Shown: in pieces, positions 6,662-55,936 of the stretch | How the letters are laid out: each line of letters starts with the position of its first letter | Position numbering within the stretch: the first letter of the stretch is position 1 | Assembly: GCA_028283855.1 (NCBI GenBank) | Contig: JAPWJX010000003.1 | Span: forward strand, 434,001 to 498,000 | Reading direction: 5' to 3' | Length of the DNA stretch: 64,000 nt | Origin: Verrucomicrobium sp. | Lineage (GTDB): Bacteria; Verrucomicrobiota; Verrucomicrobiia; Methylacidiphilales; GAS474 | The notes under the pieces: model-generated | What the model was told of the DNA's origin: nothing | The model's database searches: none | What the model saw: only the letters and a program-made list of their open reading frames with translations | Program-made: the position numbers and the translations under genes

Positions 6662-9121
6662 ATGACCGCCGCGCCCGCCCCCGAACTCCTCGCCCCCGCG
6701 GGCGACTGGGATTGCGTCCGCGCCGCCGTCGCCAACGGGGCAGACGCCGTCTACTTCGGCCTGACCAAGTTCAACGCCCGGCTGCGGGCCGACAACTTCA
6801 CCCTGGAAGACCTGCCGAAGATCGTCGCCTACCTCCACGAGCGCGGCGTGAAGGGCTACGTGACGATGAACACCCTCCTCTTCCCCGGCGAGCTGGCGGA
6901 GGCGGAACAATTCCTCCTGGCCCTCGACCGGGCGGGGACCGACGCCATCATCGTCCAGGACCTGGGCCTGGCCGCCCTGGCCGCCGCCGCCGCGCCCGGC
7001 CTGGAAGTCCACGCCTCCACCCAGATGACCATCACCTCGCCCGAAGGGGCGCAGATCGCCGCGCGGCTGGGCGTCACCCGCGTCGTCCTGGCGCGGGAGC
7101 TTTCCTTGAGGGAAATGGAGCGCTTCCAGCACGAGGCCGGCTCGCTGCCGCTGGAAGTCTTCGTCCACGGCGCGCTCTGCGTCGCCTACTCCGGCCAGTG
7201 CCTGACCAGCGAGTCGCTGGGCCAGCGCAGCGCCAACCGGGGGGAATGCGCCCAGGCCTGCCGCCTTCCCTACGACCTCATCGTCGACGGCGCGCTGAAA
7301 GACCTGGGCGACAAACGCTACCTCCTCTCCCCGCAGGACCTCGCCGCCGTGGCGGAGATCCCGCAGCTGATCGAGCGCGGCGTCGCCAGCTTCAAGATCG
7401 AAGGCCGCCTCAAGTCCCCCGAATACGTCGCCGCCGTCTGCCAGGTCTACCGCAAGGCGATCGACGCCTCCCTGGCCGGACGCCCCGCCGCCCCCGACGC
7501 CGACGACCGGCGCAAGCTGGAACTGACCTTCTCCCGCGGCCTCTTCTCCGGCTGGATGCACGGCGTCGACCACCAGCAGCTCGTCCACGGCCGCCATTCC
7601 AACAAACGCGGCCCCCTGGCCGGGCGCGTCGCCGCCGTCGATGCGCGGCGGCAAACCGTGGAAATCGAATGGGAGGGCGAGCCCCTGCGCCCCGGCGACG
7701 GCATCCTCTTCGACGACGGCGGCGACCAGAACGCCCAGCAGGGCGGCCGCCTCTGGCAGGTGGCGGGAGGCCGGATTTCCTTCGAGCGGGGCCGGATCGA
7801 CTTCGCCCGCCTCGCCCCCGGCCAGGCCGTCTACCAAACGGACGACCCCCGGCTCGACGCCGCCCTGCGCCGCACCTTCGCCCAGGACGCCCCGCCCGCC
7901 GACCGGCCCCTTTCCTTCACCGTCTCCGGCAAGGCCGGCACGCCCCTGCGCCTCCGCGCGGAGGCGGGCGTCGGCGGCGTGGAACTCGATTCGGCCATGC
8001 CCCTGGAACCGGCCCGCACCCAGCCCCTCGACACGGCGCGGCTCCGCGCCCAGCTGGGGCGGCTCGGGGGCAGCGGCTTCACCCTGGCCGCGCTGGAAAA
8101 CGGATTGGAAGGCCAGGTCGTCCTCCCCGTCGCGGAACTCAACCGCCTCCGCCGCGAGGCCGTCGCCGCGCTGGGAAAAGCCGCGCCCGCTCCCGCCGCC
8201 ATCCGCGCGCCGTCCGCGCCCGTCCTGCAGCGGCTCCTTCCCGCGCGTCCCGCGCCGCAGCCCGGCCCCGCCGCCTGCGCCGTCCTCTGCCGCTCCCTGG
8301 AACAGCTCGGCGCCCTCCTGGAAGCGGGCGCGCGGACCCTCTACGTCGATTTCGAGGACATCCGCCGCTATAAAGAGGCTGTTTCCCTTGTCCGGGAAAC
8401 CCCCGGCGCGCTCGTCTACCTCGCCACCCCGCGCATCCAGAAATCGGGCGAGCAGGGCTTCTTCAAACTGATCGAGAACGCCGCCCCGGACGGCGTCCTC
8501 ATCCGCAACCTGGGCGCGCTCCACCACTTCCGCGCGTCCCCCCTGCGGAAAGTCGGCGACTTCTCCCTCAACGTCGCCAACCCCCTCACCGCGCAGCTCC
8601 TCATGGCGCCGGAGTGGGGCCTGGAGCGGGTCACCGCCTCCTACGACCTCAACGCCCGCCAGCTGGCCGACCTCCTGGCCGCTTGCCCGCCGGAATGGCT
8701 GGAAGTCGTCCTCCACCAGCACATGCCCATGTTCCACATGGAGCACTGCGTCTTCGCCGCCTTCCTTTCCGAAGGGAAAGACCACACCACCTGCGGCCGC
8801 CCGTGCGACCGCCACCAGATCGCCGTCCGCGACCGCGTGGGGGCTACCCACCCCGTCCTGGCCGACGTCGGCTGCCGCAACACCGTCTACCACGGCCGCG
8901 CCCAGAGCGGCGCCGCCTTCCTGGAAGAGTTCCGCGCCCTCGGCGCGCGGCACTTCCGGCTGGAACTGCTGCGGGAAGACGCCGCCGCCACGCGCCGGGT
9001 CTACGAGAGCTACGTCCGCCTCCTGGCGGGCGACCTCTCCCCCGCCACCCTCCGCGCCCAGCTCCAGGTGGCCGACCAGCTCGGCGTCACCAGCGGAACG
9101 TTGACCGTCCTCGGCAAATAG
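6662..9121 (+). CDS. U32 peptidase-family protein, RlhA/YhbU-like RNA hydroxylation factor
   Basis: This 819-residue protein opens with ELLAPAGDWDCVRAAVANGA and DAVYFGL, the TIM-barrel-like start of family U32. The U32 signature EVFVHGALCVAYSGQCLTSE lies at about residue 168, with further conserved cysteines in ANRGECAQACRLPYDL. Despite the peptidase name, characterised members (RlhA, TrhP) support hydroxylation of 23S rRNA or tRNA. The length and the C-terminal half, with clustered cysteines in FHMEHCVFAAF and CGRPCDRH, fit the larger RlhA-like/DUF3656 type rather than the short TrhP type. It is divergent from the ATPase gene across a 66-base gap. Which RNA it modifies cannot be told from sequence. 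Confidence 0.85.
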   Translation: MTAAPAPELLAPAGDWDCVRAAVANGADAVYFGLTKFNARLRADNFTLEDLPKIVAYLHERGVKGYVTMNTLLFPGELAEAEQFLLALDRAGTDAIIVQDLGLAALAAAAAPGLEVHASTQMTITSPEGAQIAARLGVTRVVLARELSLREMERFQHEAGSLPLEVFVHGALCVAYSGQCLTSESLGQRSANRGECAQACRLPYDLIVDGALKDLGDKRYLLSPQDLAAVAEIPQLIERGVASFKIEGRLKSPEYVAAVCQVYRKAIDASLAGRPAAPDADDRRKLELTFSRGLFSGWMHGVDHQQLVHGRHSNKRGPLAGRVAAVDARRQTVEIEWEGEPLRPGDGILFDDGGDQNAQQGGRLWQVAGGRISFERGRIDFARLAPGQAVYQTDDPRLDAALRRTFAQDAPPADRPLSFTVSGKAGTPLRLRAEAGVGGVELDSAMPLEPARTQPLDTARLRAQLGRLGGSGFTLAALENGLEGQVVLPVAELNRLRREAVAALGKAAPAPAAIRAPSAPVLQRLLPARPAPQPGPAACAVLCRSLEQLGALLEAGARTLYVDFEDIRRYKEAVSLVRETPGALVYLATPRIQKSGEQGFFKLIENAAPDGVLIRNLGALHHFRASPLRKVGDFSLNVANPLTAQLLMAPEWGLERVTASYDLNARQLADLLAACPPEWLEVVLHQHMPMFHMEHCVFAAFLSEGKDHTTCGRPCDRHQIAVRDRVGATHPVLADVGCRNTVYHGRAQSGAAFLEEFRALGARHFRLELLREDAAATRRVYESYVRLLAGDLSPATLRAQLQVADQLGVTSGTLTVLGK

Positions 9122-9136
9122 CTTTTAAATCGTTCC

Positions 9137-9670
9137 ATGGCCCCGGAAATCACGCCGCTGCGCACCGCCCTCCTCAACGCCGTCACCGTCCTGGGCCGCT
9201 CCGCCGCCGAGTCGGCCAAAGACCTGGGCCGCGCGATCCGGGAAAACCCGCCGCTCCTCGGCAAAGTCCTCCTCAAGGCGCTGCCGGGCGTCGGCTTCGC
9301 GCCCGCCGCCGTCGACACCCGCCTGGCTTACGAGAACTGGCGCGCCTTCCGCGCGTGGGACGAAAACCGCCCCACCAAAGACGACGCCCACATCGAAACC
9401 CGCTCCACCCTGGCCGCGGAATTCCTCGTCAAGGGCGCGCAGGCCGCGCTGCTGACCGCCAGCGCCTTCTCCGCCGCCGTCGGGGCCAACCTCGTCCACC
9501 ATCAGCACCCCGTGGCCGCCGCGCCCTTCCTGGCCGCCGGCGCGGCGGGGCAGGCCGCCGCCCTCCTCTTCCTGGAAGCGGAGGCGGTGCCGGAAGTCGC
9601 CGCCGCGCGGCGCTCCTCCCGCGTCCTGCTGCGCCAAGCCGCTGCCGGTCCCGGCCGCGTCCGGGACTAG
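9137..9670 (+). CDS. small hydrophobic helical protein, distant member of the 22-25 kb family
   Basis: This 177-residue protein is of unknown function. It carries VLLKALPGVG (about 44-53), the same motif seen in the 22-25 kb proteins (for example ALLKAVPVVG). A polar stretch follows (DENRPTKDDAHIE), then two hydrophobic Ala-rich segments (about 99-120 and 123-145). There is no signal peptide. It begins 15 bases after the U32 gene and its stop overlaps the recQ stop on the other strand. The Ala-rich composition could make the similarity to the other proteins partly convergent. Confidence 0.6.
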   Translation: MAPEITPLRTALLNAVTVLGRSAAESAKDLGRAIRENPPLLGKVLLKALPGVGFAPAAVDTRLAYENWRAFRAWDENRPTKDDAHIETRSTLAAEFLVKGAQAALLTASAFSAAVGANLVHHQHPVAAAPFLAAGAAGQAAALLFLEAEAVPEVAAARRSSRVLLRQAAAGPGRVRD

Positions 9671-11484
9671 CTCTCCCGCAGATAATCCCGCACGGAGGCG
9701 GCGAAGGCGGCGCCGAATTCCTCCAGTTTCTTCTGCCCCACGCCGCTCACCCGGCGCATGGCGTCGAGGTCCGTCGGCTGGTCGCGCGCCATGATGCGCA
9801 GCGTCACGTCGGAAAAGATCACGTAGGCGGGCACGTCCCGCGCGTCGGCCAGCTCCTTGCGCAGGACGCGCAGGCGGTTGAAGAGGATCTCGTCGCAGGA
9901 AATGGCGCCCCGGTCCCGCCTGTCAGGCCGCGCCTTCGCCTGGGCCAGCGGCTTGGTGAGGGAGATGGGCGTCCGCTCCCGCAGGACGGCGCCCCCCTCC
10001 GGCGTCAGCTCCAGGACGGAGAACTGCCCCTCGCTCTGGCGCAGATAGCCCGCGCGCAAAAGCTGGCGGCCGATCTCCTGCCACTGGGCGCGCGGCAGCT
10101 CCTTGCCGATGCCGTAGGTGGAGAGCTTGTCGTGGCCCCAGCGCTTCACCTTCTCGCTCTGCGCGCCGGTCAGCACCTCGACGACGTGGGCCAGCCCCAC
10201 GGAAAAGCCGCCGCCCTGCTTGATCCGGTAGACGCAGGAGAGGAGCTTTTGGGCGGGGATCGTCCCGTCGTACGTCTCGCGCGGCTCCAGGCAGTTGTCG
10301 CACGCGCCGCAGCCGCCCGGCTCCACCGCCTCGCCGAAGTATTCCAAAAGCGCCGCCCGGCGGCAGCCGCTGGCCTCCGCGTAATGAAGCATTTGCTGGA
10401 GCTGGGCCGAGGCGACGCGGCGCTCCTCCTCGCTCCCCTTCTCCTCGATGAATCGGCGCTGCTTCACCGCGTCCCCGGCGCTGAAGAAAAGAAGGCATTC
10501 GGCGGGCAGGCCGTCGCGGCCCGCGCGGCCCGTTTCCTGGTAGTATCCCTCGATGTTCTTCGGCAGGTCGTAGTGGACGACGTAGCGCACGTTCGGCTTG
10601 TTGATGCCCATGCCGAAGGCGATCGTCGCGCAGACGACGCGCACCTCGTCCCTTAGAAAAAGCTCCTGGGACCGGGCGCGCTCGGCGGCGTCGAGGCCCG
10701 CATGGTACGCGCGGGCGGGCACGCCGTCCGCCTGGAGCTTCTGCGCGACGGCCTCCGCCCCCTTCCGGCTCTGGCAGTAGACGATGCCCGCCTCCCCGCG
10801 CCGGGGGCCGCTCTCCAGCCACTCGACGAGCTGGTCGTACGCGCCGCTCTTCGGCGTGACGCGGTAGGTCAGGTTGGGCCGGTTGAAGCTGGCGACGAAG
10901 TGGCGCGCCTTCTCCAGCCCCAGGAGGGCGGCGATGTCCCCGCGCACGCGCGGGGTGGCGGTGGCGGTCAGGGCCAGGACGGGGACCTTCGGGAAGCGGC
11001 GGCGGAGCGTGGAGATCTGCCGGTATTCGGGCCGGAAATCGTGCCCCCACTCGCTGATGCAATGCGCCTCGTCGACCGCCAGAAGGGAGAGGCCCCACGC
11101 CTCCAGGTTCTCCAGGAGGCCCGGCAGCATGAGCCGCTCCGGCGCGGCGTAGAGAAGCTTGTATTCCCCCCGGTGGAGGCCGCGCAGGCGGGCGCGGGCC
11201 TCCGCCTCGTCCAGGGTGGAATTGAGATAGGTGGCCGCCACGCCCGCCGCCTGGAGACTGTCCACCTGGTCCTTCATGAGGGCGATGAGCGGGGAGACGA
11301 CGACGGTGAGCCCCGGCAGGACCAGAGCAGGCAGCTGGAAGCAGAGGGACTTGCCGCCGCCCGTCGGCAGGAGGGCCAGGGCGTCGCGGCCCGCCAGGAT
11401 CTCCTCCATGATCTCCCGCTGGAGCGGGCGGAAGGAGTCGAACCCGAAGGTCTCCTTGAGGGCGGCGGCGAGGCGGTCGGGCAT
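9667..11484 (-). CDS. recQ: ATP-dependent DNA helicase RecQ
   Basis: This 605-residue superfamily 2 helicase unwinds DNA 3' to 5' in recombination and repair. It has Walker A (LLPTGGGKSLCFQLPAL), a DEAH box (AVDEAHCISEWGHDFRPEY) and motif VI (QETGRAGRDGLPAECLLFF). The RecQ zinc-binding cysteines are in EASGCRRAALLEYF and GGCGACDNCLEP. A winged-helix domain follows, and a C-terminal HRDC domain contains RVSGVGQKKLEEFG. The ATG at 11482-11484 gives MPDRLAAALKETFGFDSFR, matching the usual N-terminus; 65 upstream in-frame codons do not. All canonical domains are present. It is divergent from the thioredoxin-like gene. Confidence 0.96.
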   Translation of the reverse strand: MPDRLAAALKETFGFDSFRPLQREIMEEILAGRDALALLPTGGGKSLCFQLPALVLPGLTVVVSPLIALMKDQVDSLQAAGVAATYLNSTLDEAEARARLRGLHRGEYKLLYAAPERLMLPGLLENLEAWGLSLLAVDEAHCISEWGHDFRPEYRQISTLRRRFPKVPVLALTATATPRVRGDIAALLGLEKARHFVASFNRPNLTYRVTPKSGAYDQLVEWLESGPRRGEAGIVYCQSRKGAEAVAQKLQADGVPARAYHAGLDAAERARSQELFLRDEVRVVCATIAFGMGINKPNVRYVVHYDLPKNIEGYYQETGRAGRDGLPAECLLFFSAGDAVKQRRFIEEKGSEEERRVASAQLQQMLHYAEASGCRRAALLEYFGEAVEPGGCGACDNCLEPRETYDGTIPAQKLLSCVYRIKQGGGFSVGLAHVVEVLTGAQSEKVKRWGHDKLSTYGIGKELPRAQWQEIGRQLLRAGYLRQSEGQFSVLELTPEGGAVLRERTPISLTKPLAQAKARPDRRDRGAISCDEILFNRLRVLRKELADARDVPAYVIFSDVTLRIMARDQPTDLDAMRRVSGVGQKKLEEFGAAFAASVRDYLRES

Positions 11485-14015: not shown

Positions 14016-14477
14016 ATGGAAACACCGCCCCCCAATGAAGCCGCCGTCCTGAGCCGCCTGCGCGGCGCCTACGGCCCCTCCGCGCGCGACCGGGTCGGCC
14101 GCTGGATCTTCGCCCTCTTCTTCCTGGGATTCTGCGCGCCCCTCTGCTGGATCTTCGCCGCCGGGCAGATGCCGCCGCCCCCCGGCCATCTCCCCACCGT
14201 CCTGGCCACCTGGATGCTGATGCCCTTTTCCATCGCCCTGGGGCTCTTCGCCCTCCTGGTTCCCCACCCCACCTACTTCTTCACGGGGGATGCCGTCGTC
14301 GCCCGGCGCGGGCGGAAGGAATTGTGGAAAGCCCCGCTTTCCGAAATCGCGCGCGCCGAGCGGCTCGACGAAAAATCGAACGAGCAGGTCCTCCTCCTCG
14401 CCGCCGCCGACGGCCGGGAATGGCGGCTTAACCTCTATCCCGAGCTGCGCCGCGCCTGGCGCGCGGCGCTTCACTAA
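14016..14477 (+). CDS. two-helix membrane protein with C-terminal PH-like region
   Basis: This 153-residue protein has two hydrophobic segments (about 30-50, WIFALFFLGFCAPLCWIFAA, and about 62-84). A C-terminal soluble part reads YFFTGDAVVARRGRKELWKA, then DGREWRLNLYP. Alternating beta-strand-like residues around a basic patch resemble bacterial PH-like (YcxB/DUF-type) domains, though this is weak. It is last in the four-gene envelope operon. Its 3' end overlaps the next, convergent gene by 50 bases. Confidence 0.65.
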   Translation: METPPPNEAAVLSRLRGAYGPSARDRVGRWIFALFFLGFCAPLCWIFAAGQMPPPPGHLPTVLATWMLMPFSIALGLFALLVPHPTYFFTGDAVVARRGRKELWKAPLSEIARAERLDEKSNEQVLLLAAADGREWRLNLYPELRRAWRAALH

Positions 14478-15015
14478 CCGGCGCTCCGGGCCGCTCCGGG
14501 TGGAGCCGCGCCCATTCCCGCAAGTCGCGGACGATCGGCGCCTGCCACAGGCGCGCGTCCTTGTCCCACGCGGCGGTGAGCAGGGAGACGCAGCAAGCGG
14601 TGACGAAGGCCTCCCCCATGCCGCGCAGATGGGTCCGCGTGGAAGCGGCGGCGATGCCGTGCCGCACCAGGTCGGTCGCGAATGTCCCGGCCTCGTAAAG
14701 ATTGTAGCCCGCCGCGCCGAGGCCCAGGAAACCGTAGGCGCGGGTGCGGACGCCCAAGCCCTTCAGGGCGGCGCCGTGCTTGGAGACAATCGCCTCCGTC
14801 CGCTCCCGATCCTCCGGCGCCACGCGTCCCCGGCGGAAGGTGACGGAAACGCCGCCGTTCTTTTCCTCGATGAGGTCCGGTTCCCGCGTCAGCGCGTGGC
14901 CGACGGAGGCGAGCACCGCCCCCTTGAACCCCTGGCGCACCGCGCCCCAGACGGGAAGCCCGTCCTGGAGGCCGTTGAGGAACGCCCGCGTATCGTCCTG
15001 ATAAGCGCTGCCCAT
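14428..15015 (-). CDS. small helical protein, possible distant member of the small-protein family
   Basis: This 195-residue protein is of unknown function. The N-terminal part contains GLPVWGAVRQGFKGAVLASV (about 19-38), a loose version of the P-x-x-G motif of the 22-25 kb proteins. A charged region follows (DLIEEKNGGVSVTFRRGRVA), then hydrophobic Ala/Gly-rich helices (about 105-150: YGFLGLGAAGYNLYEAGTFA). No signal peptide is seen. It ends inside the convergent upstream gene (50-base overlap) and lies 10 bases downstream of smc, so it may be read from the smc transcript. Membership in the family is uncertain. Confidence 0.55.
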   Translation of the reverse strand: MGSAYQDDTRAFLNGLQDGLPVWGAVRQGFKGAVLASVGHALTREPDLIEEKNGGVSVTFRRGRVAPEDRERTEAIVSKHGAALKGLGVRTRAYGFLGLGAAGYNLYEAGTFATDLVRHGIAAASTRTHLRGMGEAFVTACCVSLLTAAWDKDARLWQAPIVRDLREWARLHPERPGAPVSEAPRARRGAARDRG

Positions 15016-19505: not shown

Positions 19506-20723
19506 ATGAGTCGATTGCCCACGCGGCGCGTCGCCCCCCGGGCCACTCCGGCCCGTCGACCACGCAAGGAAACGCCTATTTGGCCGGAAAAAACCCGCCC
19601 GCTGCGGGTCTTGATTTGGGACGATCGTCCCGCCAGCGCCCGGCGCTGCGCGGCCCGGCTGGAAGCGGCCGGATTCCGCTGCAAGACGGCCCACGCCGCC
19701 ACAAAGCCGGAATTCCAAAAGCTGCTGACGTCAAGCGGGTGGGAACTGCTGCTTTGCGCCGACGCTTTCCTGGGAGAAGACCCGGCCGCGTTGGTCCGGG
19801 AGGCCGGCGTCCCGGCTCCCCTCCTCTATTTCGTTCGCGCCGGGGAGCGCGGGGGAAAGACCCCCTCCCCCGCCCGGCAGGCGGAGGCGCTCCGCGCCGG
19901 AGCCGCCGACTACCTGCTGCCGGAAGACTGGGACCGGCTGCCCTGCGTCATCGAACGCGCCCTCCGCCTCGGCCGCCTGGAAGAGGCCCATCAACGGGCG
20001 GATGCCGCCCGGGCGGGCGCGGAGCGGCGGCTGCAAACGGTCCTCGACCACAATCCCGACATCCTGCTGGTGATCCAGGCGGTGACCGGCACCATCCTGC
20101 GGGCCAACCGCGCCGTCCAGAATCTCCTGGGCTACCAAGAGGAGGAGCTGGCCGGGCGCCATTTCTCCGCCCTCTTCCCCCTGGAAAACGAGCCCGCCGT
20201 GGGCGACCTGATGGCCCGCTTCCGGGTGCGGGGCGGCGTCTTCGAGGGGCAGCGCTTCCTTTGCGTCGACGGCAGCGTCCGCCCCCTCGACGTGACGGCG
20301 GAAATCGTCGCCTGGGGCCAAACGCAGGCGATCCTGGTGACCCTTCACGACGCGGAAGCGCGGGAATCCCTGGAGCGGCAGGCCTTTTGGAACGGCCACA
20401 GCGCCGCCCGCTGCCTCGACCCGCTGCTTTGGACGGAAGCCGACGGGCTCATCTGCCACCTGAACGAGGCGGCCTGCCGCCTCCTGGGCTACCGGCCGGA
20501 AGAACTTCTGGGCCGGCCCCTGGCGGAAATCGACCCCGGCTTCGGAGCGGGACTCTGGCCTCTGCATTGGGAGGAGGTGAAGGCGCGGGGGCGCTTTCTC
20601 CTCACCACCCGCCTCAAGCGGAAAGAGGGGGACAGCCTGGCCGTGGAGGCGGAAGTCCTCCACCTGCGGCACAACGGGAGGGACTACCACTGCCTCCTGG
20701 CGCGGACCCCGGAGAGCGCGTGA
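19506..20723 (+). CDS. orphan signalling protein: degenerate receiver plus two PAS domains
   Basis: The 405-residue protein starts with a receiver-like domain (about 33-150: RPLRVLIWDDRPASARRCAA, acidic pair Asp39/Asp40, putative acceptor Asp86 in LLLCADAFLG). The conserved Lys of active receivers is missing: the usual YLxKP is YLLPED. Two PAS domains follow at about 178-290 (LQTVLDHNPDILLVIQAV, NLLGYQEEELAGRHFSALF) and about 300-400 (LLGYRPEELLGRPLAEIDPG). There is no kinase, cyclase or DNA-binding output. It may act as a sensor adaptor or titrating partner; a partner kinase is not in the window. It converges on the frameshifted gene to its right. Confidence 0.8.
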   Translation: MSRLPTRRVAPRATPARRPRKETPIWPEKTRPLRVLIWDDRPASARRCAARLEAAGFRCKTAHAATKPEFQKLLTSSGWELLLCADAFLGEDPAALVREAGVPAPLLYFVRAGERGGKTPSPARQAEALRAGAADYLLPEDWDRLPCVIERALRLGRLEEAHQRADAARAGAERRLQTVLDHNPDILLVIQAVTGTILRANRAVQNLLGYQEEELAGRHFSALFPLENEPAVGDLMARFRVRGGVFEGQRFLCVDGSVRPLDVTAEIVAWGQTQAILVTLHDAEARESLERQAFWNGHSAARCLDPLLWTEADGLICHLNEAACRLLGYRPEELLGRPLAEIDPGFGAGLWPLHWEEVKARGRFLLTTRLKRKEGDSLAVEAEVLHLRHNGRDYHCLLARTPESA

Positions 20724-20792
20724 GCGGGAAAAAGCCCCGCCGCGCGAAAGGGGCGGAGGCAAAAGGAAAAGAAAAGCCGCCGGAACCCCCGG

Positions 20793-21072
20793 TCAGCCCT
20801 CGTTCCAGACCCGTTCTTTTTTGGTCTCCCACTCCTCCCGAATTGCCGGAAGGTCGCGGCTGATCATGGCGGCGGACTTCCTCCGCTTCCGCCGGATTGC
20901 CGGAAAGCTCCGCCTGGGCCAGGAGGCCCTGCAGGAACGTCTCCCGCTCCGCCAGGCGGGCTTGGTAGAGGGAATTGATCTCGGCCAGGCGGGCCTTCTG
21001 GTCCGGGGTCAGGGGCCGGCTGGGCTCCTTCTTGGCCAGGCGCTCCATGGCCAGCTCATAGGCCGACTTCAT
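20793..21072 (-). pseudogene. small coiled-coil protein gene with apparent frameshift
   Basis: The frame from 21072 encodes MKSAYELAMERLAKKEPSRP, then LTPDQKARLAEINSLYQARL and a charged helix ending NPAEAEEVRR. This layout is familiar from short verrucomicrobial proteins of about 90 residues. At 20865-20872 the reading shifts by one base. In the +1 frame, starting at an ATG (20865-20867), the charged helix resumes as MISRDLPAIREEWETKKERV, then WNEG and a stop at 20793. Without the shift the frame runs on into a long Gly/Pro/Ser-rich nonsense tail. It starts 8 bases after the 227-residue gene and is probably cotranscribed. It could be a real mutation, a sequencing error or a programmed shift. 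Confidence 0.65.
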
Positions 21073-21079
21073 AGGGGGA

Positions 21080-21763
21080 TCAGGCCGGGGCCTGCTGCTT
21101 GGAGAGGCGCTCCATTTCCTGAAGCGTCAGGAGGTGCTCCGCCGGAGCGTTGGCCCCGCTGAAGCGCTCCTCGATGCCCAGCATCTCGTCCACCACGCGG
21201 GCGCAGGCCTTCTCGATGATCGCGGGCTCCTCGAACATCCATTCCGGATGGTCCTGGGCCACGCGCAGGAGATGGTCCCGCAGCCCCTCGGCGCAGAACC
21301 AAAGGCCGTAACGGTGAAGGGGGGAAAGCGCCAGCTCGATGGCGGACTGGTCCGCCGGCAGCCCGCGCAGGGAAAGCGTCAGGTTCATGCCGAAGATCTC
21401 CATGCCGCCCGCGATGAGGGCGGTGGAATACCAGGCCTTCACATGGTGCTGGAGGCCCGCCGTGGGCTCCCCGGCGGCCAGGATCTCGACCTGCTGGACG
21501 ATGATGTCATGCAGGCCCCAATGGTCCCGCAGGCACTGGAACTGGCGCAGGACCAGGTCAAAGGCCTCCACCGCATCCCGGCTGAAGCGGGCGCGCTCCG
21601 CGCGGAGGAGAGAGGTGTCGGGATAAAGGAAGAAGACGGCGTCGCCCGCCTGGTCAAACTTGGGAACGGAAGCGTTCCAATCCAGTAGGGCGGAAAAGCC
21701 GCTGTCGTCGGCGGGGGGCTGCTCGGGAGGAAGCGGGGGAGGTTGGACCGGCTCGGCGCTCAT
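21080..21763 (-). CDS. hypothetical protein, 227 residues
   Basis: A Pro-rich N-terminus (about 5-20) leads into a mostly helical soluble protein with balanced composition. Examples are LYPDTSLLRAERARFSRDAV, FDLVLRQFQCLRDHWGLHDI and LLTLQEMERLSKQQAPA. There is no signal peptide, membrane segment or recognised motif. It is the first of two minus-strand genes (8-base gap to the coiled-coil gene) and lies downstream of the small-protein run, separated from it by a strong terminator. Its own promoter is not obvious. I assign no function. Confidence 0.65.
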   Translation of the reverse strand: MSAEPVQPPPLPPEQPPADDSGFSALLDWNASVPKFDQAGDAVFFLYPDTSLLRAERARFSRDAVEAFDLVLRQFQCLRDHWGLHDIIVQQVEILAAGEPTAGLQHHVKAWYSTALIAGGMEIFGMNLTLSLRGLPADQSAIELALSPLHRYGLWFCAEGLRDHLLRVAQDHPEWMFEEPAIIEKACARVVDEMLGIEERFSGANAPAEHLLTLQEMERLSKQQAPA

Positions 21764-21896: not shown

Positions 21897-21927
21897 CCAG
21901 GGGCTGCGGGTTCTCCGCAGCCCCTGG
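21897..21927 (-). terminator. rho-independent terminator ending the small-protein operon
   Basis: A perfect 13-base stem (CCAGGGGCTGCGG pairing with CCGCAGCCCCTGG) with a 5-base loop is followed, on the minus strand, by ATAATTTTAG. It lies about 80 bases after the last gene of the 22.0-24.9 kb run and before the 227-residue gene. Confidence 0.8.
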
Positions 21928-22008: not shown

Positions 22009-22431
22009 TCAGCCCACCTCGGCGCCTTCGGGAATCCGGAAACCGGAAAGGGCCTGCGAGATGCCCGCGAAGGGATTGGCGCTGGGAGCCTGCGAGCGGG
22101 TCATGTCGCCCGCGCCGTTCCGGAGCGTCTGCTGGGTGGCGGACGGCTGCGGGGCCGCCTGGGGATTGAGGAGCTTGTCCGCCAGGGGCTGAAGGATGCC
22201 GATGGCTTCCTCCGCCATGACGCGCTGCATGGGGGAGGCTTTCGCCAGCTTCCAGCGCGCGACGGCCAGGGCGCCGTCCTTCAGCGCCTCGCGGAAATTG
22301 CCGTGGACGAGGGCGTTGGCCGCTTCCGCGCCGTCGACGACCGCCGCCGCCTTTTCCCAGTATCCGCCGATCGGGGAACCGGCCAAAAGCGCCTTGCCTT
22401 GTGTCTTGAGGAAGCTGCCCATGAAGCTCAT
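22009..22431 (-). CDS. small-protein family member (140 residues)
   Basis: Unknown function. The N-terminus MSFMGSFLKTQGKALLAGSP is followed by IGGYWEKAAAVVDGAEAANA and LVHGNFREALKDGALAVARW. It carries a loose form of the family motif (L15-L16-A-G-S-P20-I-G-G), then a GN-x3-AL helix like the GD-x3-AA helix of the neighbouring 133-residue protein. The C-terminal half is Pro/Gln/Asn-rich and probably disordered. A good ribosome binding site (AGGAGA, 5 bases before ATG) supports the start. It is last in the run and followed by a strong terminator. It has no signal peptide. Confidence 0.65.
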   Translation of the reverse strand: MSFMGSFLKTQGKALLAGSPIGGYWEKAAAVVDGAEAANALVHGNFREALKDGALAVARWKLAKASPMQRVMAEEAIGILQPLADKLLNPQAAPQPSATQQTLRNGAGDMTRSQAPSANPFAGISQALSGFRIPEGAEVG

Positions 22432-22485
22432 AAAAATCTCCTGAGGGGGGTTAAGAAAGGAAGAGCAGAAGGAGTGCCAGGCGGC

Positions 22486-22887
22486 TTACTGCTCCAGGCC
22501 GGGGATGCGATTTTCCAGGGCGCTGGTGAGCGCCTGAAGGGGATTGGCGAATTGGAACGGCACATTGCCGTAGCGGGGCGCGCGGCCGCGGGCGGCGTCT
22601 TGCGCCTTGGTCGTGAAGACCCGGTCCTCGGCCACGTTCAGGATGCCGACGAGCAGCTCGGTCTTCCCGGCGGCCCGGCCGGTGATCGCGGCGCGGGCGC
22701 GGAGGCCGCCCTCCAGCAGCTCCATGGCGGCGTGGCCCTTGTCGCCATGCTGGAAATCCTGGTAGGCGTGGCGGAAGTTGTTCAGCGCCGCAAGGCCCTC
22801 GAAACCGCGGCCGGCGACCGGCACTTCGGCCAAGACGGCCTTGCCGAGGGTTCCTGCGATTTCCGTGGTAAGAGAGGGTTGGCTCAT
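22486..22887 (-). CDS. small-protein family member (133 residues)
   Basis: Unknown function. The protein reads MSQPSLTTEIAGTLGKAVLA, then EVPVAGRGFEGLAALNNFRH and DFQHGDKGHAAMELLEGGL. The family motif appears as V18-L-A-E-V-P23-V-A-G26, about 20 residues before a GD-x3-AA amphipathic helix. The last 40 residues are more polar (RAPRYGNVPFQFANPLQALT). AGGA lies 8 bases before the ATG. A terminator-like hairpin separates it from the gene upstream, so it may have its own promoter or be reached by read-through. Confidence 0.65.
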   Translation of the reverse strand: MSQPSLTTEIAGTLGKAVLAEVPVAGRGFEGLAALNNFRHAYQDFQHGDKGHAAMELLEGGLRARAAITGRAAGKTELLVGILNVAEDRVFTTKAQDAARGRAPRYGNVPFQFANPLQALTSALENRIPGLEQ

Positions 22888-22960
22888 GGTCTTGGTCCTG
22901 GTTCTTTGGGTTTCTAAACCTCAATGAGCATCGGCAATGCCAGGTACGCGCCGGTACGTA

Positions 22961-22988
22961 AAAAACGCCGGGAAAGCCCGGCGTTTTT
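22961..22988 (-). terminator. terminator within the small-protein gene run
   Basis: AAAAACGCCGGG pairs with CCCGGCGTTTTT (12-base stem, 4-base loop). Both strands end in a T tract, so it can work in both directions. It lies 26 bases after the stop of the 159-residue gene and would partly separate the last two genes of the run from the first three. Confidence 0.75.
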
Positions 22989-23014
22989 CGCGTTTTAAAG
23001 AGAGGGGAAAAGAT

Positions 23015-23494
23015 CTACCGCTCGCGGCCCCGCTCGGACCGGGGGGAGAGCTGGAGCGTTCCCGCGTCGTAGGCGCGGCGCAGGACGATGTCCCCGGCTT
23101 CATTGGCCCGGCGGGTCGCCGCGATCCGGGTGTCCATTTCCCGCGCGACGCCGACAGCGTCCAAAAGAGCGCCCAAGCCCAGGGAGACGCCCATGGCGAC
23201 AAACTCGCGCGTGTTATGCGCCTTCATCGTGACCCCGGCCCACACCAGGCCCAGGCCCGTCACCGTGGCCATGGTCTGATTGAGCCGGACCTGGCCCTCC
23301 AGCTTCTTGGCGTCAGCTTCCTCCGTCTTGCCCTGCGCGCGGAGACGGGAGGACTCGATGTGGGCGTGGACGGACTGGGCCAGGGCCGTCACCGTGCCGA
23401 CGACGGGGACCGCCTTGAGCAGCGCGTGGTAGTAGGGCGCGTACTGCTGGAAGTGAGTCGGCGTCGGTTCCTGGACGGGGGCGGTGGTGCTCAT
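23015..23494 (-). CDS. small-protein family member (159 residues)
   Basis: Unknown function. The clearest family motif is here: HALLKAVPVVGTVTALAQSV (about 23-42), followed by a charged segment (SSRLRAQGKTEEADAKKLEG). A long hydrophobic stretch with glycines comes next (about 76-115: MATVTGLGLVWAGVTMKAHN, FVAMGVSLGLGALLDAVGVA), then a charged tail. A hydrophobic helical hairpin able to insert into a membrane is likely. The ATG at 23492-23494, with AAGGA 5 bases upstream, is preferred over an in-frame ATG 13 codons earlier. There is no cleavable signal peptide. Confidence 0.7.
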   Translation of the reverse strand: MSTTAPVQEPTPTHFQQYAPYYHALLKAVPVVGTVTALAQSVHAHIESSRLRAQGKTEEADAKKLEGQVRLNQTMATVTGLGLVWAGVTMKAHNTREFVAMGVSLGLGALLDAVGVAREMDTRIAATRRANEAGDIVLRRAYDAGTLQLSPRSERGRER

Positions 23495-23521
23495 GTGATC
23501 CTTGGCTCTGGGTTGAAAAGA

Positions 23522-23568
23522 GCCCGGGAACAAGCAAGTACCGGGCCAGCCCCGCCATGTGGCGGGGC
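23522..23568. repeat. tandem hairpins between small-protein genes
   Basis: Two inverted repeats lie in the gap between the 161- and 159-residue genes. GCCCGG (23522-23527) pairs with CCGGGC (23541-23546). GCCCCGCC (23549-23556) pairs with GGCGGGGC (23561-23568) over an ATGT loop. No T tract follows on the minus strand, so they look like RNA structure or processing sites rather than terminators. Confidence 0.5.
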
Positions 23569-23598
23569 CGACCGTGAAAAAACCCGCTTAAACGGCGT

Positions 23599-24084
23599 TT
23601 AGCGCGTCCGTTCCAAGATGGCGGGCAGCGGCGCCGCCACTTCCGGCAGAGACCGGGAGGCCCCCTCCAGGTCGAGGCGGGATTCCTCCCGGCGGATCGG
23701 CCCTTCGTAGAGGAAGGCGTCCGCCCCCTCGCTCACGATGGCCTGCGCCGCCTGGGCGCCCACGAGGACGGTAGCCGCCTCCCCGGGGCCGCCCAGCGCC
23801 CAGGCCGCCGCGGCGGCCGCCAGGGGGATCACCAATTCCAGGGCCTGGCGGCCCTTCGATTTGCCTTGGTCGGCGTAGAGCTCCTGCAGGGCGGCGTGAC
23901 CCTCGGCCTGGGCCTCGGCCGCCTTGGCCAGGCACTCCCGCCGCTGGGAGAGGGCCTTGAGGCAGCTGTAAACCGGCAGGCACTTGAGCCCGATCTGTCC
24001 GGCGATCTCGCCGGAGGTCAGGCGGGGCACGCCGGTTTCGAGCGTTTCGGCCGCGTTATCGTCGTCGCTAAGAAAAAAAGACAT
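23599..24084 (-). CDS. small-protein family member (161 residues)
   Basis: Unknown function. After a short acidic start (SDDDNAAETLE) the motif appears as I-G-L-K-C-L-P37-V-Y. A charged Ala-rich helix follows (about 50-80: ECLAKAAEAQAEGHAALQEL), then a hydrophobic Ala/Gly segment (about 88-115: LELVIPLAAAAAAWALGGPG). The Lys-Cys-[VL]-Pro tetrad is shared with the 251-residue neighbour (LLKCVPLVG). AAGGG sits directly before the ATG. It follows the 251-residue gene by 21 bases, so the two are probably cotranscribed. Confidence 0.65.
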   Translation of the reverse strand: MSFFLSDDDNAAETLETGVPRLTSGEIAGQIGLKCLPVYSCLKALSQRRECLAKAAEAQAEGHAALQELYADQGKSKGRQALELVIPLAAAAAAWALGGPGEAATVLVGAQAAQAIVSEGADAFLYEGPIRREESRLDLEGASRSLPEVAAPLPAILERTR

Positions 24085-24105
24085 CCCTTGGGTTCCCGGT
24101 TGAAG

Positions 24106-24861
24106 TTAGTTGAGGTCGTGCGCGCCGCTGGTGCTCGGGTGGAGGCCCAGCTGGATCAGGCCGCCGTTCTTGTGGCGGGAAGGCCGGATCCGCTCGAAGA
24201 GAGCCTTGCCGTGCTGGAGCGTGCGGCCCGCTTCCAGCGCCTTGCCGACGGCCTTGGGAGCGCCCAGGCCCTTCATGGCGTCGCCCAGGCCGGGGACGTC
24301 TTCCAGGAGGGAGCCCAGGACTTCCTTCTCCGCCAGGCGGGCGGCGGCGTGGGCTTCCTTCGACTTGCCCTCCGCGTAGAGCCGCTCGGCGTTCTTGATC
24401 CGCTTGTCGAAGTTTTCCATCTGCCGCTCGGCCGTCAGCGAGATGCCCCAGCTGGGCAGGATGTATTCGGAAACCCCGTGGTGGAAGGGAAGGCTGGCGT
24501 AGATCGCCACGTTGAAGGCGCCCGCCCCCGCGCGGACGAAGCCCTGCAGGGCGCGCATGCCGACGATGCCCCACTGCCGCTTGCGGGCGGCGACCGCCGC
24601 CTGGCCCATGTTGATCATCCCGTGCGTCACGCCGGTGAGCCCGCCGACCAGCGGCACGCACTTCAGCAGCGCGCCGCCGATGCCGGTTTCGGCCTTCGTT
24701 TCGCCTTGAGCCGGTTCCTCCTTCTTTTCGGAGCCGGGTTCGGGCTCCGGCGCGGCGGCAGGCGCCGCCAGCCGCCGCGGGGCGGCAGGGGAGCCGGCCC
24801 GGTCGGGTATAAGGTTGCCGAAGAAGAGACCTGTCGTGGGGATGGGGGGATTAAGAACCAT
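24106..24861 (-). CDS. small-protein family member, first and longest of the run (251 residues)
   Basis: Unknown function. A Pro/Ala/Glu-rich leader (about 20-58) precedes the motif ALLKCVPLVGGLTGVTHGMI (64-83). Hydrophobic and Gly-rich segments follow (about 100-125: ALQGFVRAGAGAFNVAIYAS). The C-terminal half is charged and helical (NFDKRIKNAERLYAEGKSKE) with a second P-G-x-G (DVPGLGDAMKGLG). There is no signal peptide and no ribosome binding site. A shared 12-base element lies 22 bases upstream of the ATG, so this gene probably heads the operon. Confidence 0.65.
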   Translation of the reverse strand: MVLNPPIPTTGLFFGNLIPDRAGSPAAPRRLAAPAAAPEPEPGSEKKEEPAQGETKAETGIGGALLKCVPLVGGLTGVTHGMINMGQAAVAARKRQWGIVGMRALQGFVRAGAGAFNVAIYASLPFHHGVSEYILPSWGISLTAERQMENFDKRIKNAERLYAEGKSKEAHAAARLAEKEVLGSLLEDVPGLGDAMKGLGAPKAVGKALEAGRTLQHGKALFERIRPSRHKNGGLIQLGLHPSTSGAHDLN

Positions 24862-25015: not shown

Positions 25016-26179
25016 ATGACCAAAAAGATCCGCATGGGAATGGTGGGGGGAGGGGAGGGCGCCTTCATCGGTGCCGTTCACCGGATGGCCGCCGCGCTGG
25101 ACGGCCAGATCGAATTGGTCGCGGGCGCGTTCAGCTCCGATCCGGCCCGCTCCCGCGCCTCGGGCCGCGCGCTCTTCCTGCCGGAAGAGCGGTGCTACGG
25201 CTCCCACGCGGAGATGTTCGCCGCGGAGGCCGCGCGGCCCGCGGCGGAGCGGATCGAATTCGTCTCCATCGTCACGCCGAATTTCCTCCACTTCCCCGTC
25301 GCCGAAGCCGCGCTGCGCCACGGCTTCCCCGTCCTCTGCGACAAGCCGCTGACCCTCACGCTGGACGAGGCCGTCCGCCTGGCCGCGCTGGTGCGGGAGA
25401 CGGGGCTCCCCTTCGGCCTCACGCACAATTACACCGGCTATCCGATGGTGAAGGAGGCGCGCGCCCGCGTCGCCGCCGGGGACTTGGGCGCGGTGCGGAA
25501 AGTCGTCGCCGCCTATCCGCAGGGCTGGCTGGCCGCGCGGATCGAAGCCGGCGGCCAAAAGCAGGCCGACTGGCGCACCGACCCCGCGCGCGCGGGCCTG
25601 AGCTGCTGCATGGGCGACATCGGCACCCACGCGGAGAACCTGGCCGAATACGTCACCGGCCTCCGGCTGGAGGCGGTCTGCGCCGACCTCGCCACCTTCG
25701 TCCCCGGCCGCCCGCTGGACGACGACGGCAGCGTGCTTCTCCGCTTCCGCGGCAGCGCGCGCGGCGTCCTCCACGCCACCCAGGTGGCGGCGGGGGAGGA
25801 GAACGGCCTTTCCCTCCAGGTCTACGGGGAGAAAGGCTCCCTCCACTGGCGGCACGAGGAGCCGAATAGCCTCACCCTCCTCTGGCCCGACCGGCCCCGG
25901 GAGATCGTCCGCGCGGGCGCGGGCCCGCTCAGCGAGGCGGCCCGCCGCCACACGCGGCTGCCCGCCGGCCATCCGGAGGGATTCCTGGAAGCCTTCGCCA
26001 ACCTTTATCGCAACTTCGCCGCCGCGCTCCGCGCGCGCGCGGCGGGAGAGGCGCCCGATCCCGCGCTCGACTTCCCCGGCGTGGCGGACGGGGTGCGCGG
26101 CATGGCCTTCCTGGAAGCCGTCGTCGCCTCCTCCCTCGGCGAGAAGAAGTGGCAACCGGTCGCCGATCCGCTTAGCTAG
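25016..26179 (+). CDS. Gfo/Idh/MocA family oxidoreductase
   Basis: This 387-residue NAD(P)-dependent sugar dehydrogenase has a Rossmann domain that begins [20 protein letters not shown]. The family's catalytic-region signature is [20 protein letters not shown] (about 110), with the EKP/DKP Lys. The C-terminal alpha/beta substrate domain includes [17 protein letters not shown]. The next gene, 7 bases on, is a TIM-barrel sugar epimerase, and such pairs commonly act in sugar or polyol breakdown (for example inositol-like or keto-sugar pathways). The substrate cannot be told from sequence. It is probably cotranscribed with the following genes from the promoter at about 24.9 kb. Confidence 0.9.
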
Positions 26180-40409: not shown

Positions 40410-40481
40410 TTCCCGGGCGGAGTCTAAAGGTTATTTCGGCGGGTGTCATCTTCCGGGGAGCCGTTTTTCAGGTGGATTTGC

Positions 40482-40495
40482 GGCACGTGAATTGC
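40482..40495 (+). promoter_or_regulatory. sigma-54 promoter of glnA
   Basis: GGCAC (40482-40486), five bases, TTGC (40492-40495): the GG and GC dinucleotides are exactly ten bases apart, as required for the -24/-12 sigma-54 promoter. Transcription would start near 40507, about 28 bases before the glnA ATG. Such promoters need an enhancer-binding activator (NtrC type), whose sites should lie upstream, within pta or the gap. Confidence 0.75.
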
Positions 40496-40534
40496 TTGCA
40501 TGGGCGCTTTCGCTAACCCAACCAACGGAGAAAT

Positions 40535-48225: not shown

Positions 48226-49311
48226 ATGGCGAAACCCCTTAAGGTCGGGATCATCGGCGCGGGCGGCATCGTGAGGGGGGCCCACCTCAAACCCGGCTGG
48301 CTGGCCGTCCCCGATTGCGAGGTGGCCGCGATCTGCGACATCCACCCCGAGGCGGCGCAAAAGCTGGCCGACGATTTCAACATCCCCCGCGTCTTCGCCG
48401 ATTTCCGCGAGATGCTGGCCATGCCGGACCTCGACGCCGTCGACATCTGCACGCCGAACAAAGTCCACACCCCCGCCGTCATCGCCGCGCTGGAGGCGGG
48501 CAAGGACGTCCTGTGCGAAAAGCCGCTGGCTGTCTCCGTGGAGGAGATCCTGCAGATCCGCGCCGTCCTGCGGAAGACCGACCGCATCCTCATGACGGCG
48601 CAGCACCACCGCTTCAGCCCGGAGTCCCTGGCCATCAAGGCGTGGGTCGACTCCGGCGCGCTGGGGGAGCTTTACCACGCCCGCGTCAACGCCACCCGGC
48701 GCAACCACCTTCCCATCAACCCCGGCTTCATCGACCCGAAGCTTTCCGGCGGCGGCCCCTGCATGGACATCGGCGTCCACGCGCTCGACACCGCGCTGTG
48801 GCTGATGGGCTTCCCCACGCCCGTGCGGGTGAGCGGGCGGGCCCACACCAACTTCGCCAAAGGCTTCGAGATCCCCGGCGCGTGGGGGGAGTGGGACCGC
48901 ACCCTCTTCGGCGTGGAAGACTTCGCCGGCGGCTACATCCACTTTTCCAACGGGGCGACGATGGTCCTGGAAGCCAGCTGGCTCCAGCACCAGGAAAAGG
49001 AGGAGCTGAACGCCACCCTGCAGGGAAAGAAGGCCTCCGTCCGCTGGCCGGACGGCCGCTTCCATACGGTGGTCAACCGGGCCCTGGTCGACGGTACCGT
49101 CCTGCCCATCGTGGGGCGCAAGCCCGCCCACACGGAGGAAATCCTGGCCTTCGCGGAGGCGGTCCGCCGGCGCTCCCCCTCCCCCGTTCCCATCGACCAG
49201 ACGCTCCTGGTCATCGCCATTTTGGAGGCGATCATGAAGTCGAGCGAATCGAACCGGGAGATCCTTCTCCCGGACTTTGCCGCGGCGGAGCCGCAGGCGC
49301 CCGCTCCTTAA
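48226..49311 (+). CDS. Gfo/Idh/MocA family oxidoreductase (second)
   Basis: This 361-residue protein has the Rossmann start PLKVGIIGAGGIVRGAHLKP, the VDICTPNKVHTPAVIAALEA block and the catalytic-region motif VLCEKPLAVSVEEILQIRAV, followed by DIGVHALDTALWLMGFP. It is an NAD(P)-dependent sugar or cyclitol dehydrogenase of unknown substrate. The ATG at 48226 gives MAKPLKVGIIGAG; the frame is open earlier, but those codons lie in the divergent promoter and the neighbouring gene. Its end overlaps the convergent small gene by 4 bases. It is only modestly similar to the Gfo/Idh protein at 25 kb, so the two are probably not a recent duplication. Confidence 0.9.
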   Translation: MAKPLKVGIIGAGGIVRGAHLKPGWLAVPDCEVAAICDIHPEAAQKLADDFNIPRVFADFREMLAMPDLDAVDICTPNKVHTPAVIAALEAGKDVLCEKPLAVSVEEILQIRAVLRKTDRILMTAQHHRFSPESLAIKAWVDSGALGELYHARVNATRRNHLPINPGFIDPKLSGGGPCMDIGVHALDTALWLMGFPTPVRVSGRAHTNFAKGFEIPGAWGEWDRTLFGVEDFAGGYIHFSNGATMVLEASWLQHQEKEELNATLQGKKASVRWPDGRFHTVVNRALVDGTVLPIVGRKPAHTEEILAFAEAVRRRSPSPVPIDQTLLVIAILEAIMKSSESNREILLPDFAAAEPQAPAP

Positions 49312-49871
49312 GCCTCCGCCACCGGCTCGCGGTAGTCGCCGCGCAGCGAGCGGATCGGATGGAGCACGGCCTTCTTGAAATCGACCCCGCCGAAGCGGTT
49401 CGATTCGGGCGTGGGCAGGCCGAATTCTTCCAGGGAGTCCTTGAAAGGGGAGAAACCGGCGAAGGAGCCGCCGTGGGCCTCGCCCTTGCCCTCGGGGCTG
49501 ACGCGGCCGGCGAGATGGGCGATGACCGGGCGCAGCGCGGCGCGGTGTCCCTCTTCCTCCTTGTTGTAGATCCGGTACATGACCAGCGCCTCGCGCAGGA
49601 CGATTTCACGATTCCGGTTGGTGATCTGGGCCTCGGCGAAGGCCTTCAGATCGTTGGCATACGCCTGCCCTCCCCGCATCAAGTTGTGGGAGACCGAATT
49701 TAGAAGGGGGTCTCCCATGCTAAAATCGCGGAGGAAGCCGCTGAGGGAGCTTCCGCTGTTCAACGCCTTGGAAATCGTTTTCAGCGCCCCGGGCGGCAGC
49801 GGCGCTTTGTTTTTAACCGCCTTTTCGATCCCGGTTTCCAGCGCCCAAAGACGATCCATGAAGGTGCTCAT
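49308..49871 (-). CDS. hypothetical protein, third gene with the shared upstream element
   Basis: Unknown 187-residue, mostly helical and soluble protein: MSTFMDRLWALETGIEKAVK, then LPPGALKTISKALNSGSSLS and YANDLKAFAEAQITNRNREI. The C-terminal part is richer in Gly/Pro. No signal peptide, membrane segment or recognised motif. The ATAGnCGAATTA element ends 6 bases before the ATG at 49871, or 18 bases before a second in-frame ATG at 49859, so a leaderless message or the later start are both possible. It converges on the Gfo/Idh gene. Confidence 0.6.
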   Translation of the reverse strand: MSTFMDRLWALETGIEKAVKNKAPLPPGALKTISKALNSGSSLSGFLRDFSMGDPLLNSVSHNLMRGGQAYANDLKAFAEAQITNRNREIVLREALVMYRIYNKEEEGHRAALRPVIAHLAGRVSPEGKGEAHGGSFAGFSPFKDSLEEFGLPTPESNRFGGVDFKKAVLHPIRSLRGDYREPVAEA

Positions 49872-55845: not shown

Positions 55846-55936
55846 ACGCCCTACGTTCGCACTCCGGCGCGGCGTTGTCGAGGGAGCTTCAAATTGGCGT
55901 GCATTAGCCGTGCCAAAACGGCAGGCTGACCGGCCC

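What the first reader, a model, noticed from the sequence alone, without database searches (positions are those of the whole stretch)
22009..24861. Run of five small paralogous-looking hydrophobic proteins with no known function
Five adjacent minus-strand genes (133-251 residues) share the loose motif L-L-[KA]-x-[VLS]-P-x-x-G (residues 65-73, 33-39, 25-33, 18-26 and 15-23 going from the first to the last gene). In each case the motif is followed by charged, then hydrophobic or Ala/Gly-rich helices. None has a signal peptide or a recognised domain. Terminators and hairpins punctuate the run. The layout of a P-x-x-G turn, an amphipathic helix with GD/GN and hydrophobic hairpins is similar to pre-toxin or pore-forming helical modules. 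That comparison is architectural only. This is the best candidate for an undescribed system in the window: a set of membrane-active or self-assembling small proteins made from one locus.
Basis: partly seen in the sequence, partly recalled or inferred. Interest (0 to 1): 0.8.

Follow-up and report, generated by a model that had tools for sequence, protein, structure and literature searches.

The report
Sigma-54-linked orphan small-protein family
Five neighbouring genes in a soil-type Verrucomicrobiota genome encode a real but extremely diverged family of small helical proteins with no relatives found elsewhere, and three of them carry their own sigma-54-type promoter, so the cell probably makes them only on a specific signal; what they do is not known.

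Summary
The five minus-strand genes exist and are coding. They form one very diverged family: A (22009-22431) and B (22486-22887) are clear paralogs (34% identity, shuffle p 2e-4). The summed similarity of all five is 6 sd above local shuffles, against about 0.6 for control quintets. Leave-one-out profiles recover C, B and E, but not A or D. E seems to hold the module twice. No homologue was found in 60 relatives, 388 phylum genomes, phages, plasmids, viral contigs, Pfam, NCBIfam, PHROGs, PADLOC or PDB. The 'hydrophobic' label fits C, D and E only moderately, and A and B not at all.

New finding: canonical -24/-12 (sigma-54) sites lie 48-55 bp upstream of the ATGs of C, B and A (about 0.003 expected). 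The same scan finds sites before glnA, hpf and flgF, the expected sigma-54 targets. So this is a lineage-specific paralog array with three genes probably under separate sigma-54 control. A role as membrane-associated helical proteins made on demand is inference. The pre-toxin or pore comparison has no sequence support, and no non-flagellar type III secretion marker was found. The genome is in the same genus as Verrucomicrobium sp. GAS474, in which no homologue was detected.

The parts
24106..24861 (-). gene E, 251 aa; module at residues ~60-110 (LLKCVPLVG) and a weaker second copy at ~176-220 (LLEDVPGLG)
   Evidence: internal repeat shuffle p 0.008
23599..24084 (-). gene D, 161 aa, 21 nt after E (probable E-D operon); degenerate motif LKCLPVYS, one hydrophobic stretch
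23015..23494 (-). gene C, 159 aa; LLKAVPVVG at residues 24-32, charged helix, hydrophobic stretch
   Evidence: leave-one-out profile E=2e-6; KD19 1.91
22486..22887 (-). gene B, 133 aa, paralog of A
   Evidence: 34% identity to A over full length, shuffle p 2e-4
22009..22431 (-). gene A, 140 aa, paralog of B; shared C-terminal ANP..(I/L)..AL..RIP
23533..23548 (-). sigma-54-type -24/-12 site TGGCCCGGTACTTGCT, 54 bp from the ATG of C (measured from the start of the site)
   Evidence: PWM 15.5 bits
22927..22942 (-). sigma-54-type site TGGCATTGCCGATGCT, 55 bp from the ATG of B
   Evidence: PWM 13.5 bits
22464..22479 (-). sigma-54-type site TGGCACTCCTTCTGCT, 48 bp from the ATG of A
   Evidence: PWM 13.8 bits
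23549..23568 (.). 20-bp perfect palindrome GCCCCGCCACATGGCGGGGC (9-bp arms, CA/TG centre) abutting the -24 element of C (activator site or hairpin, undecided)
22960..22989 (-). terminator-like hairpin with T run between C and B
   Evidence: -20.4 kcal/mol, z -5.0
21897..21927 (-). strong hairpin downstream of A

Best explanation
The locus is a lineage-specific tandem array made by repeated duplication and fast divergence of one small helical module (~50-70 residues: LLKxxPxxG, then a helix with [HQ]G...A...L.G..R). C, B and A are each transcribed from their own sigma-54 promoter, while E-D appear to be a separate unit without such a site. Mechanism proposed: an enhancer-binding activator responding to some signal (nitrogen, stationary phase, motility or surface state) opens the three promoters; the proteins stay in the cytoplasm (no signal peptide), fold as helical bundles and dock on the inner face of the membrane or on each other through the PxxG-capped amphipathic helix, with a more hydrophobic hairpin in C and D. 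Shown here: genes, family relationship, promoter-type sites, absence of detectable homologues. Inferred: actual sigma-54 use, membrane docking, oligomerisation and any physiological role.
For: Joint similarity of the five, z 5.9 against 0.56 (mean) for control quintets; the only two controls above 5 score 15-16, presumably because they contain a true paralog pair. P<0.001 also without A-B. Leave-one-out profiles rank C (2e-6), B (0.0045) and E (0.0086) first among non-members of 251 proteins. An a priori sigma-54 matrix gives 6 sites >=13 bits in the window against 1.4 in simulated sequence; three lie 48-55 bp upstream of C, B and A, where about 0.003 would be expected. The same scan finds glnA (40481), hpf (55900; PF02482), flgF (L016) and an NlpC/P60 gene. 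Orphan status.
Against: Only A-B is individually significant; A and D fail the leave-one-out test. Genome-wide, a 16-mer pattern drawn from these sites occurs about as often as its reversed control (25 vs 20), so sequence alone does not prove promoter use. No orthologue exists in which to test conservation of the sites. Membrane docking rests on hydropathy only; the structure models are low confidence.
Confidence: 0.55

Rival explanations
1. The proteins are delivered outside the cell as effectors acting on another organism's membrane, comparable in style to chlamydial inclusion membrane proteins, through a type IV-like system or the flagellar exporter.
For: Sigma-54 controls secreted effectors and Inc proteins in Chlamydia (PMC7482065), a distant cousin in the PVC group. 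The genome has a TrbI/VirB10-like type IV gene cluster with a weaker sigma-54-type site (10.8 bits) and flagellar export genes. Fast divergence and lineage restriction are typical of effectors.
Against: No dedicated type III system: the single SctV/FlhA match lies in a flagellar operon. No shared C-terminal signal among the five by eye. The type IV cluster may simply be conjugative. No sign of a host-associated life.
Confidence: 0.15
2. They are toxin or pre-toxin-type modules (pore formers, bacteriocin-like).
For: The PxxG turn followed by helices resembles pre-toxin segments architecturally.
Against: No match to any pre-toxin, toxin or defence family above cut-off; no immunity partner, signal peptide or secretion gene recognised next to them; low hydrophobicity of A and B.
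Confidence: 0.08
3. Unrelated orphan genes that look alike because of Ala/Gly/Leu-rich composition and helical periodicity.
For: Most single pairwise comparisons are not significant; the A and D leave-one-out tests fail.
Against: Composition-preserving and locally preserving shuffles and Ala-rich control quintets (max z 3.4) do not reach the observed 5.9; A-B is clear.
Confidence: 0.12
4. The -24/-12 sites are chance matches and the genes use ordinary promoters.
For: The GC-rich genome makes such strings common; the genome-wide 16-mer count is near its control; the -24 of C overlaps a hairpin.
Against: Three matches at nearly the same distance from three consecutive genes; no sigma-70-like site found in the region; the same matrix picks canonical sigma-54 targets.
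Confidence: 0.12

Closest known systems
Sigma-54-controlled membrane and secreted proteins of Chlamydia trachomatis (including Inc proteins; PMC7482065)
   Same: PVC-group bacterium; sigma-54-type promoters in front of small orphan proteins, some with hydrophobic stretches
   Different: No type III secretion system found here, no sequence similarity known, hydrophobic segments weaker, flagellated organism of a soil-isolate genus
Pre-toxin (PT-TG-like) segments of polymorphic toxins
   Same: P-x-x-G followed by helix (architecture only, recalled from memory)
   Different: No Pfam match, no toxin domain, no secretion or immunity context
Lineage-specific orphan paralog arrays in bacterial genomes
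   Same: Tandem, fast-diverging, no homologues found outside the lineage
   Different: Individual sigma-54-type sites on three consecutive members

Membership tests
One paralogous family (the five genes) | Sequence similarity beyond composition among the five | tested here: met
   Joint z 5.9, P<0.001; C, B, E pass leave-one-out, A and D do not, A linked through B
One paralogous family (gene 9137-9670 as sixth member) | Similarity beyond the LLKALPGVG motif | tested here: not met
   z 1.05, p 0.16 against the five; not found by the five-gene profile
Sigma-54-dependent genes | -24/-12 element at a proper distance upstream | tested here: met
   C, B, A; consensus as in PMC12316311
Sigma-54-dependent genes | rpoN and an enhancer-binding activator in the genome; transcription depends on them | not tested
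Chlamydial Inc-type proteins | Non-flagellar type III secretion system | tested here: not met
   Only one SctV-family match, below cut-off, inside a flagellar operon; genome 95.6% complete
Chlamydial Inc-type proteins | Long bilobed hydrophobic domain | tested here: not met
   C has two moderately hydrophobic stretches (1.91, 1.47) far apart; D and E one; A and B none
Pre-toxin / polymorphic toxin | Match to a pre-toxin or toxin family | tested here: not met
   No Pfam, NCBIfam or PADLOC match above cut-off
Pore-forming proteins | Membrane insertion or pore activity | not testable with these tools
   needs experiment

The most novel reading that the evidence does not exclude
A previously undescribed, signal-switched set of co-assembling membrane-docking proteins: sigma-54 turns on C, B and A, which combine with E and D into a membrane-remodelling or delivered assembly unique to this lineage.
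Probability: 0.12. Interest if true: 0.7.

Novelty: new variant of a known kind. Interest (0 to 1): 0.4.

Why it matters
Orphan protein families in poorly cultured phyla usually come with no functional handle. Separate sigma-54-type promoters on three consecutive paralogs give one: the genes can be grouped with other candidate sigma-54 targets of the same genome (glnA, hpf, flgF, an NlpC/P60 enzyme, another small hydrophobic orphan, a trio of larger orphan paralogs, a giant surface-type protein) and tested by their regulator. The activator's identity would point to when and why the proteins are made.

Tried and rejected
Database families (Pfam, NCBIfam, PHROGs, PADLOC, PDB sequences): only sub-threshold chance hits such as LrgB 0.011 and PglZ 0.0019. 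Weak hits in relatives (L004/L014, L039, L019) read out as MBL-fold, deacylase-like and transporter-like proteins, i.e. unrelated. The phylum search gave 2 hits at E<=0.01 in 388 genomes, about what chance gives. Sixth member at 9137-9670: motif only, rejected as member for now. Genes 14428-15015, 49308-49871, 21080-21763: not related. The sigma-54-preceded 116-aa protein in L152: not related by sequence. Type III secretion: the SctV match proved flagellar. Structural search of the model of C: best E 0.63, meaningless. Rfam: nothing above gathering score.

Full report
Where it is. The window is G000:C3:434001-498000 of a 2.56-Mb, 9-contig genome, 95.6% complete. Its genus-mate G002 has a single contig of 3,763,444 bp, the published length of Verrucomicrobium sp. 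GAS474, isolated from forest soil (PMC5786674), so this is a Verrucomicrobiota genome of that genus. The five genes sit between a PAS-domain gene (19506-20723) and a Gfo/Idh/MocA-like gene (25016-26179). In GAS474 and the other genus-mate the Gfo/Idh orthologue (73% identity) has other neighbours and no homologue of the tested proteins was detected, so the array was gained, or has evolved beyond recognition, in this lineage. Its GC (0.69-0.71) and codon usage match the surrounding genome.

Are the five related? Single BLASTP and HMM pair comparisons are mostly insignificant, so I tested the set as a whole. A and B align over their full length at 34% identity with a common N-terminal module and a common C-terminal ANPxxx(I/L)xxALxxRIP (shuffle p 2e-4). 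The sum of the ten pair scores is 445 against 323-335 in global and local shuffles (P<0.001), and stays at P<0.001 without A-B. Control quintets of other proteins from the genome have mean z 0.56; the two outliers at z 15-16 presumably hold true paralog pairs; Ala-rich controls reach at most 3.4; the cluster has 5.9. Leave-one-out profiles place C, B and E directly after the members used, among 251 proteins; A and D fail, and the C+E profile ranks D third and B fourth. E seems to contain the module twice. I conclude that the family is real and extremely diverged. The motif is over-represented (4 vs 0.12), but it is intact only in E, C and A, conservative in B and broken in D. A protein at 9137-9670 carries LLKALPGVG but is not otherwise similar.

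Homologues elsewhere. None in 60 relatives (E and C), 388 genomes of the phylum (profile), GTDB contigs (E), viral contigs, phages and plasmids, curated families or PDB. Records very near the window's genome are left out of some of these collections.

Physical nature. No signal-peptide-like N-termini by eye. C has two moderately hydrophobic stretches, D and E one each, A and B none strong enough to span a membrane. AlphaFold gives all-helical but low-confidence models (C pLDDT 60, B 47), and the Foldseek search of C found nothing significant. 'Membrane-active' therefore remains a guess.

Regulation, the new finding. Reading the upstream regions showed TGGC...TGC strings. A scan with a matrix of my own approximating the textbook sigma-54 consensus (compare TGGCAC-N5-7-TTGCT in PMC12316311) gave six sites >=13 bits in the window against 1.4 expected; three are at 48-55 bp upstream of C, B and A. 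From the background density about 0.003 sites would be expected in those positions for five genes. I noticed the strings before running the scan, but the matrix was not fitted to them. The same scan finds glnA (54 bp), hpf (about 73 bp) and, elsewhere in the genome, flgF (30 bp), all plausible or classical sigma-54 targets, plus an NlpC/P60 gene, a 116-aa hydrophobic orphan (27 bp) and larger orphan genes. E-D (21 nt apart) have no comparable site. Caution: a degenerate 16-mer taken from these sites occurs 25 times genome-wide against 20 for its reversed control, so individual hits mean little; it is the clustering and position that carry weight. rpoN itself was not searched for. A strong terminator-like hairpin separates C from B, in agreement with separate units, and a perfect 20-bp palindrome abuts the -24 of C, either an activator site or a hairpin.

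Interpretation. The best reading is a lineage-specific tandem paralog array with three members under individual sigma-54-type promoters. Docking of the helical proteins on the membrane or on each other is the most likely biochemical behaviour but is only inferred. An effector reading is possible, since sigma-54 controls Inc proteins and effectors in Chlamydia (PMC7482065) and this genome has a TrbI-like type IV gene cluster, but there is no dedicated type III system and no sign of delivery. The pre-toxin/pore reading has only architectural support.

Noticed in passing
window 40481-40496 (+), 55900-55915 (-); L016:13580 (+): Sigma-54-type sites upstream of glnA, hpf (PF02482) and flgF, the expected targets; used as positive controls.
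   Followed up: yes
L150:10007-10022 (-) and L152:8031-8046 (+): Sigma-54-type sites 40 bp before an NlpC/P60 protein and 27 bp before a 116-aa orphan with a hydrophobic hairpin; two short TPR-like paralogs flank the latter.
   Followed up: partly
L153:1661-2905 (-), 8262-9881 (+), 9895-11373 (+): Three larger orphan paralogs (414, 539, 492 aa), two of them preceded by weaker sigma-54-type sites (10.6 and 11.8 bits) and two with HEALH/HEGLH strings (possible zinc-protease motif); no Pfam match.
   Followed up: partly
L036 and L156, genome C3 about 412487-433500 (-), just upstream of the window: A giant 7,001-residue Gly/Ala/Thr-rich repeat protein with an N-terminal signal-like segment, 130 nt after a 13.7-bit sigma-54-type site.
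   Followed up: partly
L151 (genome C9:1-12000): TrbI/VirB10-like type IV secretion genes in a lower-GC (0.61) stretch, probably an integrated conjugative element, with weak sigma-54-like sites.
   Followed up: partly
window 9137-9670 (+): 177-aa orphan with LLKALPGVG and hydrophobic stretches, directly after a U32 peptidase gene; motif like the five, overall similarity not significant.
   Followed up: yes
window 20614-21072 (-): Conserved-looking start of a small protein (MKSAYELAMERL...) that runs into unlikely sequence around 20865: possible frameshift.
   Followed up: no
L155:36-2038 (+): P2-like phage tail genes (gpU-, gpX- and gpD-like by eye).
   Followed up: no
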